This document shows, piece by piece, positions 2,993 through 49,023 of a stretch of 64,000 bases of DNA. The stretch is taken from IMG/VR virus record IMGVR_UViG_3300032242_000488, positions 62,001-126,000 of that record; one strand, written 5' to 3'. The notes below the pieces were generated by a model. The model was not told the origin of the DNA. It made no database searches and was given only the letters and a program-made list of their open reading frames with translations. The stretch is from a virus. The translations under genes and the position numbers were made by a program. The stretch's first letter is position 1. Every line of letters begins with the position of its first letter.

Positions 2993-3002
2993 CAATAAAT
3001 AC
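2993..3002 (+). promoter_or_regulatory. T4-type late promoter box
   Basis: CAATAAATAC matches the T4/cyanophage late box NATAAATA. It sits between the stop of the preceding gene and the next start. By T4 spacing (box at -13 to -6) transcription would start near 3007, inside the 5' arm of the hairpin at 3002-3026. Confidence 0.6.
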
Positions 3003-3026
3003 AGCATATAGGATAATAATATGCTG
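3002..3026 (+). promoter_or_regulatory. Hairpin masking start codon and ribosome site
   Basis: Perfect 8-bp inverted repeat: CAGCATAT (3002-3009), loop AGGATAATA, then ATATGCTG (3019-3026). The loop holds the AGGA ribosome site and the 3' arm holds the ATG at 3021. Read-through transcripts would fold and mask translation. Transcripts from the adjacent late box would lack most of the 5' arm. Confidence 0.6.
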
Positions 3027-20746: not shown

Positions 20747-20779
20747 AGCATAAATACTCTATAATAAGGTATCTGTGCT
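20747..20779 (+). promoter_or_regulatory. Hairpin enclosing ribosome site next to late box
   Basis: AGCA (20747-20750) and ATAC (20754-20757) pair with GTAT (20769-20772) and TGCT (20776-20779), with 3-base internal loops. The AAGG ribosome site is in the loop and the ATG follows directly. Confidence 0.45.
20749..20757 (+). promoter_or_regulatory. T4-type late promoter box
   Basis: CATAAATAC, 23 bases before the ATG at 20780. The predicted start near 20762 lies just after the 5' arm of the hairpin at 20747-20779. Confidence 0.6.
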
Positions 20780-21124
20780 ATGAGAATGGATGAAGTTGCA
20801 AACTCAGTGATTAATTTAGAAGAAATAGATCTGCCTGCAGATTTACATTTTTTCATGCATAACGATCACAATTTTTACCGCAAGGTGTTTTTTCCTATGA
20901 TTAGCAAGGTTAAAGCACACATTAAAGCAGGTAATCGTTGCCACGATGGCGTATTCCGTCCTGTAGTTGATACTGCCGCAGAAACATACTGCAAAAAGTT
21001 TAATATTCCCGACAATCACAAGTCTGTATTCACAGATGTTGATCGTGATGAGCTAGCCCGTAAGATTTTTGGTCAAGAAAAAGATCGTATTGAGCAGGGC
21101 GACTATGATGGAGACGACCAATGA
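20780..21124 (+). CDS. Conserved late protein, unknown function
   Basis: 114 residues. DLPADLHFFMHNDHNFYRKVFFPMISKVKAHI and a His/Asp-rich acidic C-terminus (KDRIEQGDYDGDDQ) are typical of a conserved marine T4-like phage protein without an assigned role. It is the first gene after the late box/hairpin and is coupled to the next by ATGA. It heads the block of capsid-targeted candidates but itself lacks the targeting peptide. Confidence 0.6.
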   Translation: MRMDEVANSVINLEEIDLPADLHFFMHNDHNFYRKVFFPMISKVKAHIKAGNRCHDGVFRPVVDTAAETYCKKFNIPDNHKSVFTDVDRDELARKIFGQEKDRIEQGDYDGDDQ

Positions 21125-31417: not shown

Positions 31418-34087
31418 ATGAGTTATGTAGATGCTCTCTTTGACAGAGAGAATGACACCATTAAAGTCGTAGAACGAAACGACAAAGGCGAACGGGTCTA
31501 TAAAGAACACCCTGTACGCTACACATTTTACTACCCGGATCAAAGAGGCAAGTTTACTTCAATCTATGGAGATCCGCTTACTAAGGTAGTATGCAAGAAC
31601 ACTAAAGACTTCCGCAAAGAAGTTTCTATTGCTTCAAATAAAGAATTGTACGAAAGCGATATTAATCCAATCTTTGTACACTTATCCGAAAACTATTTAA
31701 ATCAAGACGCACCTAAATTAAACATCTGCTTCTTCGACATCGAGGTAGACTTTGATCCAGAGCGTGGCTATAGCACTCCAGAAGATGCGTTCATGCCAAT
31801 CACTGCGATTACTGTTTACCTAAAATGGCTTGGCAAGTTAATCACTCTAGCAATGCCACCTAAAGGCATGAAGATGGATGATGCTGTTAAACTAGTGTCC
31901 GATATTCCGGATGTACACTTGTTTGACAACGAAGGCGACATGCTAGAAACATTCCTCGATCTTATCGATGATGCAGATATTATAAGTGGTTGGAACAGTG
32001 AAGGCTATGACGTACCATATACTGTTAATCGTGTAACCCGTGTACTCAGCAAAGAAGATACCAAGCGTTTCTGTTTATGGGGACAACTACCAAAGAAAAG
32101 AGAGTACGAAAAATATGGGAAACAAGCTGTTACCTATGACTTTCATGGTCGCGTTCATTTGGACAGTCTCGAGCTGTACCGCAAATACACATATGAAGAA
32201 CGTCACACATACCGATTGGACGCTATCGGAGAAATGGAAGTAGGCGAGAACAAGACTGTCTACGAAGGCACATTGGATCAACTGTATAACAATGACTTCC
32301 ACAAGTTTATTGTTTATAACAGACAAGATACGTTGTTGCTGAACAAATTAGATGACAAGCTAAAGTTTATTGATCTTGCCAATACCCTAGCACATGAATG
32401 TACTGTACTACTACAGACTACTATGGGTGCTGTTGCTGTAACAGAGCAGGCTATTATTAACGAATGTCATCGCCGCGGATTCCAAGTTCCTAATAGACAA
32501 AAACGTGATGAAGATGCAGATAACAGTGCCGCTGGTGCTTATGTTGCTTATCCTAAAGAAGGCATTCACGAATGGATTGGCTCACTAGATATTAACAGTC
32601 TTTATCCTTCAGCTATTCGTGCGCTTAACATGGGCCCAGAAACTATTGTTGGACAGTTACGCCAGACCATGACAGATAACTTTATCCACGAACAAATGAC
32701 ACTTAAGAAAAAGTCATTTGCCGCGGCATGGGAAGGTATGTTTGGATCATTAGAATATACTGCTGTTATGGAACAGCGTATTGACAAAACGATTACGATT
32801 GACTGGGAAGATGGCAATAGTACAGAACACTCTGCCGCTGAAGTATACCAGTTAATCTTTGACAGCAATCAACCTTGGATGCTAAGTGCCAATGGTACAA
32901 TCTTTACCTACGAAAAAGAAGGTATTATCCCAGGACTTCTCAAGCGTTGGTATGCTGAACGTAAAGAAATGCAAGCCAAACTCAAAGACTGTATCAAAGC
33001 AGAAAACAAAGTTGAAGAAGAATACTGGGATAAACGTCAACTGGTTAAGAAGATTAACCTAAATAGTCTATATGGTGCTATCCTTAACGCAGGTTGTCGC
33101 TTCTTTGACAAGCGTATTGGACAGTCAACTACCTTAACAGGACGACAGATTGTTAAGCACATGGCTGGTAAAGTAAACGAGATTATTACAGGTGAGTTTG
33201 ATTATCGCGGTAAAGCTATCATCTATGGCGATACTGACTCATGTTACTTCTCTGGGTACACTACACTAAAGAAAGATATTGATAGTGGTGTTATTCCGTG
33301 GACTAAAGAAAACGTTATTGCTCTATACGATCAAGTCGGCGATGAAGTTAATAAAACATTCCCTAGCTTTATGGAACATGCATTTCATTGTCCACCAAGC
33401 CGCGGCGAAGTTATTAAAGCAGGTCGTGAGATCGTTGCTATTAAAGGGTTATTCATTACTAAGAAGCGTTATGCTGTTCTTTACTTTGATAAAGAAGGCA
33501 AACGTACAGACGTGGATGGAAAGCCTGGCAAGATCAAAGCTATGGGTTTAGACCTTAAGCGTAGTGACACACCAGAATTTATTCAAAACTTTTTAAGTGA
33601 TATTCTAGAACGTGTACTAACTGCTGGCTCGGAAACTGAAGTATTAGAACACATTACCAAGTTCCGTACTGAGTTTAAGGCTAGACCCGGTTGGGAGAAA
33701 GGTAGTCCAAAACGTGCTAATAACATTACAGACTATCAAGCCAAAGAAGCCAAAGCAGGCAAAGCTAACATGCCCGGACATGTTCGAGCCAGCATTAACT
33801 GGAATACTCTACGCCGTATGAATGGCGACAAGTATTCTATGCAGATTACAGATGGACAAAAAGTTATTGTCTGTAAACTCAAGCCAAACCCAATTGGCTT
33901 TACATCAGTTGCGTATCCTGTAGACGAACTACGTTTGCCTAAATGGTTTATGGAATTACCATTTGATGACGCAGAGATGGAACAGACTATTATTGATAAC
34001 AAACTAGAAAACCTTATTGGTGTTTTGGGTTGGGACATTAAGAGTACGGAAGAAAAGAATACCTTTAACTCGTTATTTGAGTTCTAA
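31418..34087 (+). CDS. 43: Family B DNA polymerase (gp43)
   Basis: 889 residues from ATG 31418, chosen for AAGGAG at 31408; T4 gp43 has 898. Exonuclease motifs: FFDIEVDFD (D107, E109) and SGWNSEGYDVPY. Polymerase motifs: SLDINSLYPSAIR (motif A), KKINLNSLYGAILN (motif B) and IYGDTDSCY (motif C, D605/D607). A C-terminal segment ending NTFNSLFEF is probably the clamp-interaction tail, as T4 gp43 ends similarly with a hydrophobic peptide. It is the replicative polymerase, with gp45 immediately downstream. Translation may be autoregulated by the hairpin upstream. Confidence 0.95.
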   Translation: MSYVDALFDRENDTIKVVERNDKGERVYKEHPVRYTFYYPDQRGKFTSIYGDPLTKVVCKNTKDFRKEVSIASNKELYESDINPIFVHLSENYLNQDAPKLNICFFDIEVDFDPERGYSTPEDAFMPITAITVYLKWLGKLITLAMPPKGMKMDDAVKLVSDIPDVHLFDNEGDMLETFLDLIDDADIISGWNSEGYDVPYTVNRVTRVLSKEDTKRFCLWGQLPKKREYEKYGKQAVTYDFHGRVHLDSLELYRKYTYEERHTYRLDAIGEMEVGENKTVYEGTLDQLYNNDFHKFIVYNRQDTLLLNKLDDKLKFIDLANTLAHECTVLLQTTMGAVAVTEQAIINECHRRGFQVPNRQKRDEDADNSAAGAYVAYPKEGIHEWIGSLDINSLYPSAIRALNMGPETIVGQLRQTMTDNFIHEQMTLKKKSFAAAWEGMFGSLEYTAVMEQRIDKTITIDWEDGNSTEHSAAEVYQLIFDSNQPWMLSANGTIFTYEKEGIIPGLLKRWYAERKEMQAKLKDCIKAENKVEEEYWDKRQLVKKINLNSLYGAILNAGCRFFDKRIGQSTTLTGRQIVKHMAGKVNEIITGEFDYRGKAIIYGDTDSCYFSGYTTLKKDIDSGVIPWTKENVIALYDQVGDEVNKTFPSFMEHAFHCPPSRGEVIKAGREIVAIKGLFITKKRYAVLYFDKEGKRTDVDGKPGKIKAMGLDLKRSDTPEFIQNFLSDILERVLTAGSETEVLEHITKFRTEFKARPGWEKGSPKRANNITDYQAKEAKAGKANMPGHVRASINWNTLRRMNGDKYSMQITDGQKVIVCKLKPNPIGFTSVAYPVDELRLPKWFMELPFDDAEMEQTIIDNKLENLIGVLGWDIKSTEEKNTFNSLFEF

Positions 34088-38806: not shown

Positions 38807-39188
38807 CCCAGGTATTATTGCACAGGAAATAACTACCATTGATACTAGCACCTGGAACATGAGCTCAGGTGCTAGTAGTTACTATTACACCGGTGTAGGG
38901 GCAGCCGGTAGCACCGATACCATTACTATCAGCAATGGCGGAACTCATATTAGTAACTATACAATTAGTGGAGGTCTTACGTCATCTGGTACTGTTAGTA
39001 TTGGAACTATAAGCGGTGCTGGTACAGGATATAATTGGGGCACAACGGAAGAATTTGTAAATTGTTTGCCGGACTTTAATAGAGTACAGGCCATGTGTGA
39101 ACAATATCCCGGATTAAAGATTGCCTACGAAAAATTTGTAACAACATATAAGTTAGTGAAAGATGATTATGATAGTCCAAAAGATTAA
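38760..39188 (+). CDS. Small repetitive structural-like protein
   Basis: 142 residues from a GTG start with CGGAGG upstream. The middle is Gly/Ser/Thr-rich beta sequence (GVGAAGSTDTITISNGGTHI). The C-terminus NRVQAMCEQYPGLKIAYEKFVTTYKLVKDDYD is a helix type found in many marine T4-like phage proteins and resembles the end of the protein at 39611. Probably virion-associated; unknown. Confidence 0.6.
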   Translation: MSNTSQPQDCITISSDPGIIAQEITTIDTSTWNMSSGASSYYYTGVGAAGSTDTITISNGGTHISNYTISGGLTSSGTVSIGTISGAGTGYNWGTTEEFVNCLPDFNRVQAMCEQYPGLKIAYEKFVTTYKLVKDDYDSPKD

Positions 39189-41695: not shown

Positions 41696-41994
41696 TAAAA
41701 TTTAATCTTAGTTTTTTAAATCCGTTCAAACACGAAAACTTTATTGGCTTATACAATTGGCACGGCGCAATTAGTAAAAATAAATCTTGGGAAGTAGAAT
41801 TGTACTACTATGCTCGCGAATGGTTTATTTTTACTGTAGATCTATCTTGGACAGGGTGCAGTCATGCAGGACCACGCATCGAATTTGGTTTGTTTGGATA
41901 CAATATAAGTGGCAACATTCATGACAACAGACACTGGGATTATGAAAATAAATGTTGGGAAACAGTTGACAACGACCTAAATAAAGTAGTATAA
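41692..41994 (+). CDS. Small aromatic-rich protein, unknown
   Basis: 100 residues from ATG 41692 (ATGA junction). High in Trp, Tyr and His (NWHGAISKNKSWEVELYYYAREWFIFTVDLSW, HDNRHWDYENKCWE), consistent with a compact beta-sandwich. No motif recognised. The folE promoter lies inside its 3' end. Confidence 0.5.
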   Translation: MIKFNLSFLNPFKHENFIGLYNWHGAISKNKSWEVELYYYAREWFIFTVDLSWTGCSHAGPRIEFGLFGYNISGNIHDNRHWDYENKCWETVDNDLNKVV

Positions 41995-41995
41995 T
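41966..41995 (+). promoter_or_regulatory. Sigma70-like promoter for folE
   Basis: TTGACA (41966-41971), 18 bases, TATAAT (41990-41995), 39 bases before the folE start, with CGGAG between. Confidence 0.7.
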
Positions 41996-44208: not shown

Positions 44209-44423
44209 TGAACTCAGTAGATATGGCAAATAATCTTATACATCGGGCAAAGAACTTACAAGAGTTCGTTGTTGAAACCGATGTCCCGGACGATTTTCGA
44301 TTTAATGGCGTAATACCATTTGACATGCAGATTAAAGATAGTATAATAACAGCTAAAGTAATAGCACTCGACTTCAATGAAGCTGTTACACAACTTGATA
44401 ACTTTTTAGAAAGCTGTAAATGA
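44208..44423 (+). CDS. Small conserved protein, unknown
   Basis: 71 residues: VDMANNLIHRAKNLQEFVVETDVPDDFRFNGVIPFDMQIKDSIITAKVIALDFNEAVTQLDNFL. Alpha-beta-alpha pattern, conserved in T4-like phages as I recall. TAATG upstream, ATGA downstream. Confidence 0.55.
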   Translation: MNSVDMANNLIHRAKNLQEFVVETDVPDDFRFNGVIPFDMQIKDSIITAKVIALDFNEAVTQLDNFLESCK

Positions 44424-45302: not shown

Positions 45303-46146
45303 AATAGCAGAATTATTTTATAGCGTACAAGGTGAAGGACGGTACATGGGTGTGCCGTCTGTTTTCTTGCGTACATTTGGTTGTAACTTTAAATGTGCAG
45401 GCTTTGGTATGCCACGTGGCGAATTAAGTACTGAAGTTGAATCGATAGCAAATAAAATTTCAGAATTTAAAAATTACAAAGAACTTCCACTTGTTAGCAC
45501 AGGTTGTGATAGTTATGCTAGTTGGGATCCTCGTTTTAAAGAACTTAGTGCAATGCTTTCAAGTGATGCTATTGCCGATGGTATTATGGACATGTTACCC
45601 TACGAGGGGTGGCGGGACGAGCATTTAGTTATTACAGGTGGAGAGCCACTGCTGGGGTGGCAACGTGCTTATCCAGACTTGCTAGAAAATCCTAAGATGA
45701 CGGGTTTGAAAGAGATTACATTTGAAACAAATGGTACCCAAAAACTTACTTCAGAATTTAAAGAATATTTAAAATTTGGTTGGCTTAAAGCAGGGTATAG
45801 GCCGGACAGAGAAATTACATTTAGTGTGAGTGCTAAACTTCCATGTAGTGGTGAAAAGTGGGAAGAAGCTATTCTTCCGGAAGTAGTTTGCGAGTATGAA
45901 GAAGTTGGTACAGCCTACTTAAAGTTTGTTATTGCTACAGAACAAGATTTTGCAGATGCAGAATGTGCTATTGCGGCTTATCGTAAACAAGGATTCAAAG
46001 GACATGTATACTTAATGCCAGTGGGCGGTGTTGAAAGTGTCTACGCAATGAATAATAAGAATGTAGCAATACTAGCAATGAAAAACGGATTACGATATAG
46101 TGATAGACTACAAGTACCACTATTTAAAAATGAATGGGGAACCTAA
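45289..46146 (+). CDS. queE: 7-carboxy-7-deazaguanine synthase (QueE), split cluster motif
   Basis: 285 residues; bacterial QueE has ~210-245. The N-terminus ELFYSVQGEGRYMGVPSVFLRTFGCNFKC is diagnostic. The radical-SAM cysteines are C32 and C36, but the third is not at x2: the CDS motif (GCDSYASWDPRF) appears 36 residues later, giving C-x3-C-x36-C73. ITGGEPLLGWQ (SAM-binding GGE), FETNGTQKL and FSVSAKL follow as in QueE. It would convert carboxytetrahydropterin to CDG using SAM and a [4Fe-4S] cluster. Stop overlaps the next ATG. Confidence 0.85.
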   Translation: MSKIKIAELFYSVQGEGRYMGVPSVFLRTFGCNFKCAGFGMPRGELSTEVESIANKISEFKNYKELPLVSTGCDSYASWDPRFKELSAMLSSDAIADGIMDMLPYEGWRDEHLVITGGEPLLGWQRAYPDLLENPKMTGLKEITFETNGTQKLTSEFKEYLKFGWLKAGYRPDREITFSVSAKLPCSGEKWEEAILPEVVCEYEEVGTAYLKFVIATEQDFADAECAIAAYRKQGFKGHVYLMPVGGVESVYAMNNKNVAILAMKNGLRYSDRLQVPLFKNEWGT

Positions 46147-46598
46147 TGAATAAATGGATTGAAAAGTTGTTTGGCATTGATAAAATTAAAGCCAGAACAG
46201 AAGCCGCATTAAAACAAGCAGAAGAATCAATAGAGATGGCAAATAAAGCGGCAACTGCCGCAGAAGCCGCACAGAAAGCAGAAGAGCTTGCTAAAGCTAC
46301 TCCAAAAGAACGTGCTACTGCCAAAGGTGAACCGTATGTGGCTGTATTAGATACCAAAGTAAATCCAGATAATGTGCGTAATGGATTTTTTGAGCTTGAC
46401 TGGAACGACCTTTTTGTGTTACAATTGAAACAAGCTGGTTACGGATTTGACGGAGATGCTGACGAAGAAATTGTAGATCGTTGGTTCAGAGGTCTCTGCA
46501 AAGATGTAGCCAATGAAGAAGGTGTTGATATGACTGACCGAGGTGCTGGTTATATTAATGTTCGTAAGTTAACCGAAGGTAAAAGCGAAGTTTCATGA
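46146..46598 (+). CDS. Conserved protein with N-terminal coiled coil
   Basis: 150 residues from ATG 46146 (TAATG). Residues ~10-60 are an Ala/Glu/Lys coiled coil (TEAALKQAEESIEMANKAA). The C-terminal domain (GEPYVAVLDTKVNPDNVRNGFFELDWNDLFVLQLKQAGYGFDGDADEEIVDRWFRGLC) is conserved in marine T4-like phages. Role unknown. Coupled to the nuclease gene by ATGA. Confidence 0.6.
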   Translation: MNKWIEKLFGIDKIKARTEAALKQAEESIEMANKAATAAEAAQKAEELAKATPKERATAKGEPYVAVLDTKVNPDNVRNGFFELDWNDLFVLQLKQAGYGFDGDADEEIVDRWFRGLCKDVANEEGVDMTDRGAGYINVRKLTEGKSEVS

Positions 46599-47560
46599 CA
46601 TATATTCTAGTAGATACTGCTAACACATTCTTCCGTGCCCGTCACGTCATCAAAGGTGACGCTGACACTAAGCTAGGCATGGCATTCCATATTACACTTA
46701 ACAGTATCCGCAAGGCTTGGCAAGACTTTAATGGTAGTCATGTGGTCTTCTGTCTCGAAGGTAGAAGCTGGCGTAAGGACTATTATAAGCCCTATAAAGC
46801 TCAACGTGCAGAAGCTAGAGCCGCTAAAACAGTAAAAGAACAAGAAGAAGAAACCCTATTTTGGGAATCATTTGATCAGTTTAAAGAATTTGTTACTACT
46901 AAGACTAACTGCACAGTATTACAACATCAGCAATTAGAAGCAGATGATTTGATTGCCGGTTGGATACAAAGTCATCCAAATGACGATCATGTGATCATTT
47001 CGACAGATACAGATTTTGTGCAACTTATTGCTCCGAACGTAAAACAATACAACGGAGTAATGGAAACTACAATTACACACGAAGGCATCTTTGACAAAAA
47101 AGGCAAACGTGTAATTGACAATAAAACTAAAGCAGAAAAGGCTATTCCAGATCCGCAGTGGTTATTATTTGAAAAATGCATCCGCGGTGACACTAGCGAT
47201 AACGTGTTTAGTGCATATCCTAAGGTTCGTAAGAATAAATTAGAAGAAGCATTTAACGATAGAAATAACAAGGGGTTCGCGTGGAACAATCTCATGCTCC
47301 AACGTTGGGTCGACCATAACGGTGCAGAACATCGTGTACTAGAAGACTACGAACGTAATCGTCAACTTATTGATCTTACACAACAACCCGAAGATATTCG
47401 TAATATTATTAAAGAAACAATCTCTACTAATGCTGTTACTAAAGATGTAACACAAGTTGGTATTAGATTATTAAAATTTGCTCAACTATATGACCTACAG
47501 AAAATTTCTGATCAGGCAGATAGTTATGCTAAACCTCTAAATGCAAGGTACATAAAATGA
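46595..47560 (+). CDS. rnh: T4 RNase H-like 5'-3' exonuclease (FEN family)
   Basis: 321 residues; T4 RNase H has 305. The FEN/5'-nuclease acidic motifs are in order: ILVDTANTFFRA, FCLEGRSWRKDYYKPYKAQR, QQLEADDLIAGWI, IISTDTDFVQLI and the CIRGDTSDNVFSAYPKV helix-hairpin region. It removes RNA primers and flaps during lagging-strand synthesis together with gp43. ATGA junctions on both sides. Confidence 0.85.
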   Translation: MTYILVDTANTFFRARHVIKGDADTKLGMAFHITLNSIRKAWQDFNGSHVVFCLEGRSWRKDYYKPYKAQRAEARAAKTVKEQEEETLFWESFDQFKEFVTTKTNCTVLQHQQLEADDLIAGWIQSHPNDDHVIISTDTDFVQLIAPNVKQYNGVMETTITHEGIFDKKGKRVIDNKTKAEKAIPDPQWLLFEKCIRGDTSDNVFSAYPKVRKNKLEEAFNDRNNKGFAWNNLMLQRWVDHNGAEHRVLEDYERNRQLIDLTQQPEDIRNIIKETISTNAVTKDVTQVGIRLLKFAQLYDLQKISDQADSYAKPLNARYIK

Positions 47561-48033
47561 CAGAGATACATGCAAAACCCGTAGTTGATGGAAAATTTTG
47601 GATTGTTGAACAAGACGAAAATAAAGTTGGTGTTCTAAAACTTACTGAGCAAAAGAAATTTATTTTTAGTTCAAAAGATACTATTACAGTTTTTGATAAT
47701 AAAAAGAAATTGTTTGAAACTTTTGGATCTAATTTCTTTGTAGCAAAAAAGAAATACGAAGAAATCGCAGACGTAGATAGAGAGGTGCACGGCTATCCGT
47801 CTAGTAGTGTTCCGTACAATCCCATGTACGATGTAAAGAAACATTTACCCTTGTTTACAAAGAGTAACAAATCAAAATCAGTTTATTGTGCAGGTTATTA
47901 TATTATTAAATTTGATAAAGGATGGGTAAAGAGTTTTTGTCCTAAACTTATCACAGTTGAGCGTTATCAATATGAAGGTCCATTTAAAACTGAAATGGAA
48001 ATGAAGCATAGGTTAAACAATGCAAACAGATAA
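47557..48033 (+). CDS. Conserved protein, unknown
   Basis: 158 residues. KPVVDGKFWIVEQDENKVGVLKL, HGYPSSSVPYNPMYDVKKHLPLFTKSNKSKSVYCAGYYIIKF and KGWVKSFCPKLITVERYQYEGPFKTEMEMKHRL are strongly conserved in marine T4-like phages. Beta-rich with basic patches. A nucleic-acid-related role is possible from the neighbourhood only. Confidence 0.6.
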   Translation: MTEIHAKPVVDGKFWIVEQDENKVGVLKLTEQKKFIFSSKDTITVFDNKKKLFETFGSNFFVAKKKYEEIADVDREVHGYPSSSVPYNPMYDVKKHLPLFTKSNKSKSVYCAGYYIIKFDKGWVKSFCPKLITVERYQYEGPFKTEMEMKHRLNNANR

Positions 48034-48262
48034 AATCAATACTACAATATTGACACAATTTATGAATCAGGTCAAAGCGGCTGATACTGCTAATCAACGA
48101 GAAATTAGATTAGACATTGCCACTGCTAAAAATATACATCATACACTTGCATTGGTAATGACTAGACTAGCCGGTAATTATGAAGGTCTTATGCAGTCAC
48201 AAAGCAAAGAAGATCCAGTGGTTACTGTACAAATGGATGGCGGAGTTTGGCCGGAAAAGTGA
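48020..48262 (+). CDS. Small helical protein, unknown
   Basis: 80 residues, helical (NTTILTQFMNQVKAADTANQREIRLDIATAKNIHHTLALVMTRL) with a short beta tail (PVVTVQMDGGVW). Conserved small phage protein type. Overlaps the previous gene by 14 bases; a late box and hairpin follow. Confidence 0.55.
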   Translation: MQTDKINTTILTQFMNQVKAADTANQREIRLDIATAKNIHHTLALVMTRLAGNYEGLMQSQSKEDPVVTVQMDGGVWPEK

Positions 48263-48271
48263 TGTAAATGC

Positions 48272-48280
48272 GATAAATAT
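48272..48280 (+). promoter_or_regulatory. T4-type late promoter box
   Basis: GATAAATAT, 30 bases before the ATG at 48310. The T4 spacing predicts a start near 48285, within the 5' arm of the hairpin 48279-48308. Confidence 0.6.
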
Positions 48281-48308
48281 ATACGTAGTTATCTGGAGAT
48301 ACGTATAT
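48279..48308 (+). promoter_or_regulatory. Hairpin with ribosome site in loop
   Basis: Perfect 9-bp inverted repeat ATATACGTA (48279-48287) / TACGTATAT (48300-48308). The 12-base loop contains TGGAGA, the ribosome site, and the ATG begins two bases after the stem. Long transcripts would hide the site; a late transcript loses two thirds of the 5' arm. Confidence 0.6.
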
Positions 48309-48309
48309 C

Positions 48310-48594
48310 ATGAGTCGACCTAAACCAAATGTAGTACTTGAAAGCGTTAATAAAAAAACGTATAAGAGTGATCAAATCCTAGAAGCGGAAGCTATTTGGG
48401 CAGTTTTCTATTTAGGAAAACCTTTTAACTTAAAAAGTCAAAACAGTCTAAGTGGTTATCCAGGTAGCAAGTATAAAAAAGTCAGTTTTTCAAATCCTGG
48501 CCATGCACATAATCTTGCTAAAAAATTAAACACTTTATTCAACAGCAAAGACTTTGCTGTCTATAAATTAACAACAGGCGAAGAAATAAAGTGA
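48310..48594 (+). CDS. Late small protein, unknown
   Basis: 94 residues. KSDQILEAEAIWAVFYLGKPFNLKSQNSLSGYPGSKYKKVSFSNPGHAHNLAKKLNTLF; basic, with a helix-turn-strand pattern. No family recognised. Sits behind the late box and masking hairpin, so it is probably made late although its neighbours look like replication genes. Joined to the next gene by a GTGA overlap. Confidence 0.6.
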   Translation: MSRPKPNVVLESVNKKTYKSDQILEAEAIWAVFYLGKPFNLKSQNSLSGYPGSKYKKVSFSNPGHAHNLAKKLNTLFNSKDFAVYKLTTGEEIK

Positions 48595-48994: not shown

Positions 48995-49023
48995 TTGACT
49001 TTTCTAGTGTTCTGCGTTATAAT
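48995..49023 (+). promoter_or_regulatory. Sigma70-like promoter for moxR-like gene
   Basis: TTGACT (48995-49000), 17 bases, TATAAT (49018-49023), with GGAG before the ATG at 49076. The ~50-base leader has no strong structure. Confidence 0.75.

What the first reader, a model, noticed from the sequence alone, without database searches (positions are those of the whole stretch)
48272..48310. Same layout before a lone late gene among early genes (site 3)
A 9-bp perfect stem ATATACGTA/TACGTATAT has TGGAGA in the loop and the ATG two bases after. The box GATAAATAT predicts a start near 48285 within the 5' arm. The gene lies in a replication-type operon, so such a lock would prevent early translation from read-through RNA, exactly where it is needed.
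Basis: partly seen in the sequence, partly recalled or inferred. Interest (0 to 1): 0.72.

Follow-up and report, generated by a model that had tools for sequence, protein, structure and literature searches.

The report
Conserved RNA lock before late gene
In front of a small, widely conserved phage gene sits an RNA hairpin that should block its translation when it is copied early with its neighbours, and that its own late promoter cuts away; the trick is known from phage T4, but here it is found, with pairing preserved by compensating changes, in well over a hundred phage sequences.

Summary
Taken alone the stem is unremarkable (local fold z +0.5), but comparison is decisive. Of 171 loci encoding the 94-aa protein (window plus IMG/VR relatives), 168 carry an xATAAATA/xCTAAATA box. 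75 of 86 distinct leaders long enough to test have a stem tied to that box. Swapping arms between leaders destroys pairing (0 of 5000 permutations reach the real value). One pair reads A-T 35, G-C 66, G-U 5, A-C 0 in a pattern-only scan, and stems hold 39 G-U but no A-C cells, pointing to + strand RNA rather than a DNA operator. Many exceptions use another SD/AUG-sequestering hairpin, an upstream terminator, or a leaderless start. The gene is the only one with a late box in an early-type block read from consensus sigma-70 promoters, and the phage encodes a gp55-like late sigma. Best explanation: the T4 soc/e/49/I-TevI mechanism, in which read-through RNA is locked and late RNA, starting inside the 5' arm, is free. 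A new member of a known kind, unusually well supported; timing is untested and the protein's function unknown.

The parts
48272..48279 (+). T4-type late promoter box GATAAATA
   Evidence: direct read; box present in 168 of 171 loci allowing [AC]TAAATA
48279..48287 (+). 5' arm of the lock hairpin (ATATACGTA), overlapping the box end and the predicted start site
48285..48285 (+). predicted late transcription start (+6 after the box); inference, not mapped
   Evidence: T4 late promoter geometry (established knowledge); ATGs of several other genes lie 4-6 nt after their box
48288..48299 (+). loop GTTATCTGGAGA holding the Shine-Dalgarno GGAGA
   Evidence: a GGA/GAGG-type SD lies in or next to the loop in most relatives
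48300..48308 (+). 3' arm TACGTATAT, between SD and start codon
48310..48594 (+). locked gene, 94-aa conserved protein of unknown function (MSRPKP...)
44320..44347 (+). perfect sigma-70-type promoter TTGACA-16-TATAAT, likely early promoter reading into the locked gene
   Evidence: consensus match only
46595..47560 (+). 5'-3' exonuclease (RNase H-like), upstream early-type gene
   Evidence: phrog_107 E 1.2e-41
48020..48262 (+). 80-aa gene directly upstream; 47-nt gap without terminator to the locked gene
48995..49023 (+). separate sigma-70-type promoter TTGACT-17-TATAAT for the downstream AAA ATPase gene

Best explanation
The element is a translational lock coupled to a T4-type late promoter. 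Early RNA that starts at sigma-70 promoters upstream (e.g. near 44347) runs through the 80-aa gene into this gene and folds 48279-48287 onto 48300-48308. That puts the Shine-Dalgarno in a closed 12-nt loop and stacks a helix against the start codon, so ribosomes cannot initiate well. After replication begins, a gp55-type sigma starts RNA at about 48285. This RNA lacks six of the nine 5'-arm bases, so the helix cannot form and the normally spaced SD (GGAGA, about 10 nt from ATG) is free. Shown here: sequence, promoter context, gp55 homologue, conserved pairing of + strand RNA. Inferred: exact start site, timing, degree of repression, and why early synthesis of this protein would be harmful.
For: Box and stem present in nearly all relatives chosen by protein only: 46 of 50 distinct leaders with stem >=8 bp, 75 of 86 in the enlarged set. 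Own-arm pairing mean 7.9 WC against 6.2 for swapped arms; 0 of 5000 permutations reach it. Compensatory A-T/G-C switch: 35 / 66, with 5 G-U and 0 A-C among 106 distinct stems (the 30 commonest N-termini listed there are all MSRPKP). About 4 independent, well-supported switches on the gene tree, both arms changing together and none in opposition (19 on the unsupported best tree). G-U 39 against A-C 0 when both are scored alike. Control: other late-box genes with an SD have stems >=8 bp in 15%, against 92% for this gene (the 170 target leaders include some found by a stem pattern, so the protein-only figure, 92% of 50, is the fair one). Fold energy drops from -10.1 to -4.9 kcal/mol when the RNA starts at +6, and the late leader is less folded than its shuffles (z +1.35). 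gp55-like protein E 5.4e-7 at G000:150304-150582, followed by a gene that looks like gp47/SbcD. Consensus early promoters upstream, no convincing terminator between. The same folding recovers the T4 e, soc and I-TevII structures.
Against: The hairpin is AU-rich and its energy modest; in a 101-nt context it is not better than shuffles. The SD lies in the loop rather than in a helix, so repression might be partial. The start site is assumed from T4 geometry. No expression data. A few relatives have no recognisable lock (e.g. L301, L308). The compensatory switch count is limited by the short gene (only 4 to 6 supported branches; sign test p 0.125), and related sequences are not independent.
Confidence: 0.85

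Rival explanations
1. The inverted repeat is a DNA operator over the late promoter, bound by a dimeric (perhaps auto-) repressor, as I-TevI represses its own late promoter.
For: Inverted repeat overlaps the box and the start site; I-TevI precedent (PMC2988022).
Against: Mismatches are G-U on the + strand only (39 against 0 A-C; 5 against 0), which DNA symmetry cannot explain; the distance from box to ATG, hence between arms, varies from 31 to 42 nt among stem-bearing leaders; some relatives use unrelated hairpins whose 5' arm lies upstream of the box.
Confidence: 0.06
2. The hairpin works in the late mRNA itself, as a 5' stabiliser or a spacing device between SD and AUG as in T4 genes 25 and 38.
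For: The 3' arm lies between SD and AUG, which recalls the split ribosome binding site of T4 gene 25 (PMC3014915).
Against: The 5' arm is upstream of the SD, not between SD and AUG, and the predicted late RNA lacks most of it; unfolded SD-AUG spacing is already normal.
Confidence: 0.04
3. The palindrome is a chance product of an AT-rich spacer next to a late promoter.
For: The window has many short perfect stems and the local fold is not significant.
Against: Conserved pairing with compensatory changes in about 100 distinct sequences and a low rate at other late promoters.
Confidence: 0.01

Closest known systems
T4 soc leader hairpin
   Same: Late box, then a stem whose 5' arm contains the predicted start, SD in the loop, and the 3' arm abutting or including the AUG; a late gene in an early region.
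   Different: Unrelated sequence and unrelated protein; here the stem starts at the last base(s) of the box itself and is maintained by compensatory changes in a very large group of environmental phages.
T4 gene e (lysozyme) leader; also gene 49
   Same: Long early transcripts fold and hide the ribosome site; late transcripts lack the 5' strand. For e, lysozyme synthesis was reported as reduced 100-fold (PMC3014915).
   Different: In e the SD is inside the helix and there are two late boxes; here the SD is in the loop and there is one box.
Homing endonuclease locks (I-TevI, I-TevII, I-TevIII, segB, Aeh1 mobE)
   Same: Same promoter-plus-hairpin logic inside early/middle units (PMC2988022).
   Different: The locked gene is not a recognisable endonuclease: no Pfam match, no confident PHROG match, no PDB fold match.

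Membership tests
T4-type late-start-relieved RBS locks (e, soc, 49, I-TevI) | T4-type late promoter immediately upstream of the gene | tested here: met
   GATAAATA 48272-48279; conserved in 168 of 171 loci
T4-type late-start-relieved RBS locks (e, soc, 49, I-TevI) | Phage encodes the late sigma factor gp55 | tested here: met
   T4 gp55 query hits G000:150304-150582, E 5.4e-7, 34% identity, 287-aa ORF
T4-type late-start-relieved RBS locks (e, soc, 49, I-TevI) | SD and/or AUG sequestered by an RNA helix in read-through RNA | tested here: met
   Predicted helix with covariation and G-U tolerance; SD in the loop, AUG adjacent.
T4-type late-start-relieved RBS locks (e, soc, 49, I-TevI) | Late RNA starts inside or after the 5' arm | tested here: inconclusive
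   Start predicted at 48285 from T4 geometry, supported indirectly by ATGs 4-6 nt after other boxes; no 5'-end data
T4-type late-start-relieved RBS locks (e, soc, 49, I-TevI) | Gene lies in an early/middle transcription unit that reads into it | tested here: met
   TTGACA-TATAAT at 41966-41995 and 44320-44347, mostly overlapping or closely packed genes downstream of the latter, no convincing terminator before 48310; neighbours are metabolism/replication genes
T4-type late-start-relieved RBS locks (e, soc, 49, I-TevI) | Protein is not made early although its RNA is | not testable with these tools
   needs infection data
Homing endonuclease with regulated leader | GIY-YIG or HNH nuclease domain in the product | tested here: not met
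   No Pfam match at E 0.1, no nuclease fold
Rfam-listed regulatory RNA | Match at gathering score | tested here: not met
   0 matches in the window

The most novel reading that the evidence does not exclude
The constraint 'this gene must stay silent on read-through RNA' is older than any one device. Across relatives it is met by the common lock, by unrelated hairpins that pair the SD or AUG with sequence upstream of or across the late box (L045, L049/L050, L055, L250, L272 group, Atu_ph07), by a terminator or terminator-like hairpin upstream (PA5oct, Phosso), or by a leaderless late start (L299, L304). The 94-aa protein would then be a conserved late factor that is harmful if made early.
Probability: 0.45. 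Interest if true: 0.62.

Novelty: new member of a known kind. Interest (0 to 1): 0.5.

Why it matters
T4's late-start locks were known from a handful of genes in T4 and close relatives. This case gives a large comparative data set for such a lock, with covariation, G-U asymmetry and device turnover, in environmental phages far from T4. It also marks an uncharacterised, highly conserved 94-aa protein as one whose early synthesis is probably costly, and gives a simple search rule (late box overlapping a stem that closes on the next SD/AUG) for finding other late genes hidden in early operons.

Tried and rejected
Protein function: no Pfam match, only a weak PHROG match (E 0.12), no PDB sequence relative (best E 0.38), AlphaFold model good (pLDDT 88.5) but no PDB fold match at E<=0.001 and only two unnamed viral relatives. 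MAFFT alignment of leaders misregisters the 3' arms, so pairing was tested by arm permutation instead. The recurrent TACGTAGWTAACT upstream of the box was considered as an alternative 5' arm: in several relatives it stays TACGTA when the lock is TGCGTA/TACGCA, so it does not co-vary (by eye). The DNA-operator reading was rejected on G-U/A-C asymmetry. PA5oct transcriptome papers: none usable among the titles found in the held library.

Full report
Observation. The sequence is exactly as described: box GATAAATA at 48272-48279, arms 48279-48287 and 48300-48308, a 12-base loop ending in TGGAGA, ATG at 48310. The ORF is 94 aa. The window is positions 62001-126000 of a 167,540-base virus record. 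Judged on the window alone the hairpin would not pass: 19 perfect stems of 9 bp or more occur in the window (4.0 on average in shuffles) and the local fold has z +0.52.

Context. The only late-type box on the + strand between 30032 and the window end is this one. Around it lie a GTP cyclohydrolase, QueE, a 5'-3' exonuclease, an AAA ATPase with a VWA/metallopeptidase-like partner, DHFR and thymidylate synthase, with the DNA polymerase further upstream. On the minus strand beyond 54233 come tail-type structural genes preceded by late boxes. Perfect sigma-70-type promoters lie at 41966-41995 and 44320-44347, and the scan gives no convincing terminator between the latter and 48310: the only + strand candidate, 45337-45360, lies inside the QueE gene. 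So read-through RNA is expected. The downstream ATPase gene has its own promoter-like site at 48995. A T4 gp55 query finds a homologue at genome position 150304 (E 5.4e-7), followed by a gene that looks like gp47/SbcD, so late transcription of the T4 type is likely.

Comparative test. A search with the protein found at least 599 relatives in IMG/VR, of which 80 were kept; searches from the jumbo phages PA5oct and Atu_ph07 added about 90 more. These sets were chosen by protein, not by leader. Of 171 loci (window included), 168 have an [AC]TAAATA box before the gene. In the first set 46 of 50 distinct leaders have a stem of 8 or more pairs from the box region to the SD/ATG region; in the enlarged set 75 of 86 reach the stem threshold used there. 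Exchanging 3' arms among leaders lowers the mean Watson-Crick run from 7.9 to 6.2, and none of 5000 permutations reaches the observed total. The stem is fixed relative to the promoter: it covers roughly positions 0 to +8 after the box, so a start at +6 removes most of it.

Covariation and strand. On a tree of the gene, about four well-supported independent switches change both sides together and none in opposition; the best tree suggests 19, without support. When G-U and A-C are scored alike, stems contain 39 G-U and no A-C cells. A DNA operator is read on both strands and would not distinguish them; an RNA of the + strand does. Sequences are related, so these counts are not independent events.

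Control. Other genes with a late box and an SD in the same DNA show a stem of 8 or more in 15% (61 leaders, including the T4 positives and two or three misassigned starts of the target gene), the target gene in 92% of 170. Part of those 170 came from a stem-containing pattern; the protein-selected set alone also gives 92% (46 of 50). Folding recovers the known T4 e, soc and I-TevII structures; soc is the closest in layout, with the SD in the loop and the AUG at the end of the 3' arm.

Exceptions are informative. L045 pairs TTATCCT upstream of the box with AGGATAA at the SD; L049/L050 pair GCTCAT with ATGAGC at the start codon; the L055 group and L250 have long hairpins whose 5' arm lies upstream of the box region. 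The L272 group folds CTTACTTT onto the SD. Atu_ph07 has an unrelated 14-bp hairpin reaching the SD. PA5oct has a strong intrinsic terminator directly upstream and Phosso a GC-rich terminator-like hairpin, and neither shows a lock. L299 and L304 have the ATG six bases after the box, that is a probable leaderless late start. These last readings are by inspection and were not tested statistically.

Mechanism. In T4 this arrangement keeps late proteins from being made on early transcripts: e, soc, 49 and I-TevI (PMC3014915), and the homing endonucleases I-TevII, I-TevIII, segB and mobE (PMC2988022). The present element meets every defining sequence feature that could be tested. Start site and timing are inferred. 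The fold prediction for RNA starting at 48285 is -4.9 kcal/mol and less structured than its shuffles, against -10.1 for RNA that includes the box.

Other locks in the genome. Boxes at window 2994 and 20749 and at genome position 33692 also fold onto the following SD/ATG (-10.8, -17.6 and -28.7 kcal/mol in 70-nt folds); the hairpin at 20749 is kept in relatives. The lock is thus one of several in this phage.

Verdict. It is a new member of the T4 late-start lock class, with strong comparative evidence. The protein is highly conserved (43 invariant positions in 49 sequences) and of unknown function; why it should not be made early is the open question.

Noticed in passing
G000 33692-33722 (outside the window): Very strong lock-like hairpin (AGGCATAGATAAATACTC...GGAGTATTTCTATGTCTGT, -28.7 kcal/mol in a 70-nt fold) at the late box before a 3577-aa ORF.
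   Followed up: partly
window 20749-20782: Second lock: GCATAAATACTC...GGTATCTGTGCT before a 114-aa gene; pairing kept in relatives (L315, L320) with different bases.
   Followed up: partly
window 2994-3023: Third lock-like hairpin AGCATAT...ATATGCT just after an AATAAATA box, ATG inside the 3' arm of a 1037-aa ORF.
   Followed up: no
G000 5923(-), 8486(-), 92032(+), 144153(-), 161812(+): Several late boxes are followed by ATG only 4-5 nt later (e.g. AATAAATACTATTATG), suggesting leaderless late mRNAs and marking the start site.
   Followed up: partly
window 38843-38877: Perfect 12-bp stem with an 11-nt loop (TACTAGCACCTGGAACATGAGCTCAGGTGCTAGTA), function not examined.
   Followed up: no
window 1-64000: TATAAATA is absent from both strands of the window although 7.4 copies are expected by dinucleotide shuffles; the phage uses mainly GATAAATA.
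   Followed up: no
L024, L028, L038, L043, L056 upstream of the box: Recurrent TACGTAGWTAACT-like motif upstream of the late box that does not co-vary with the lock; meaning unknown.
   Followed up: partly
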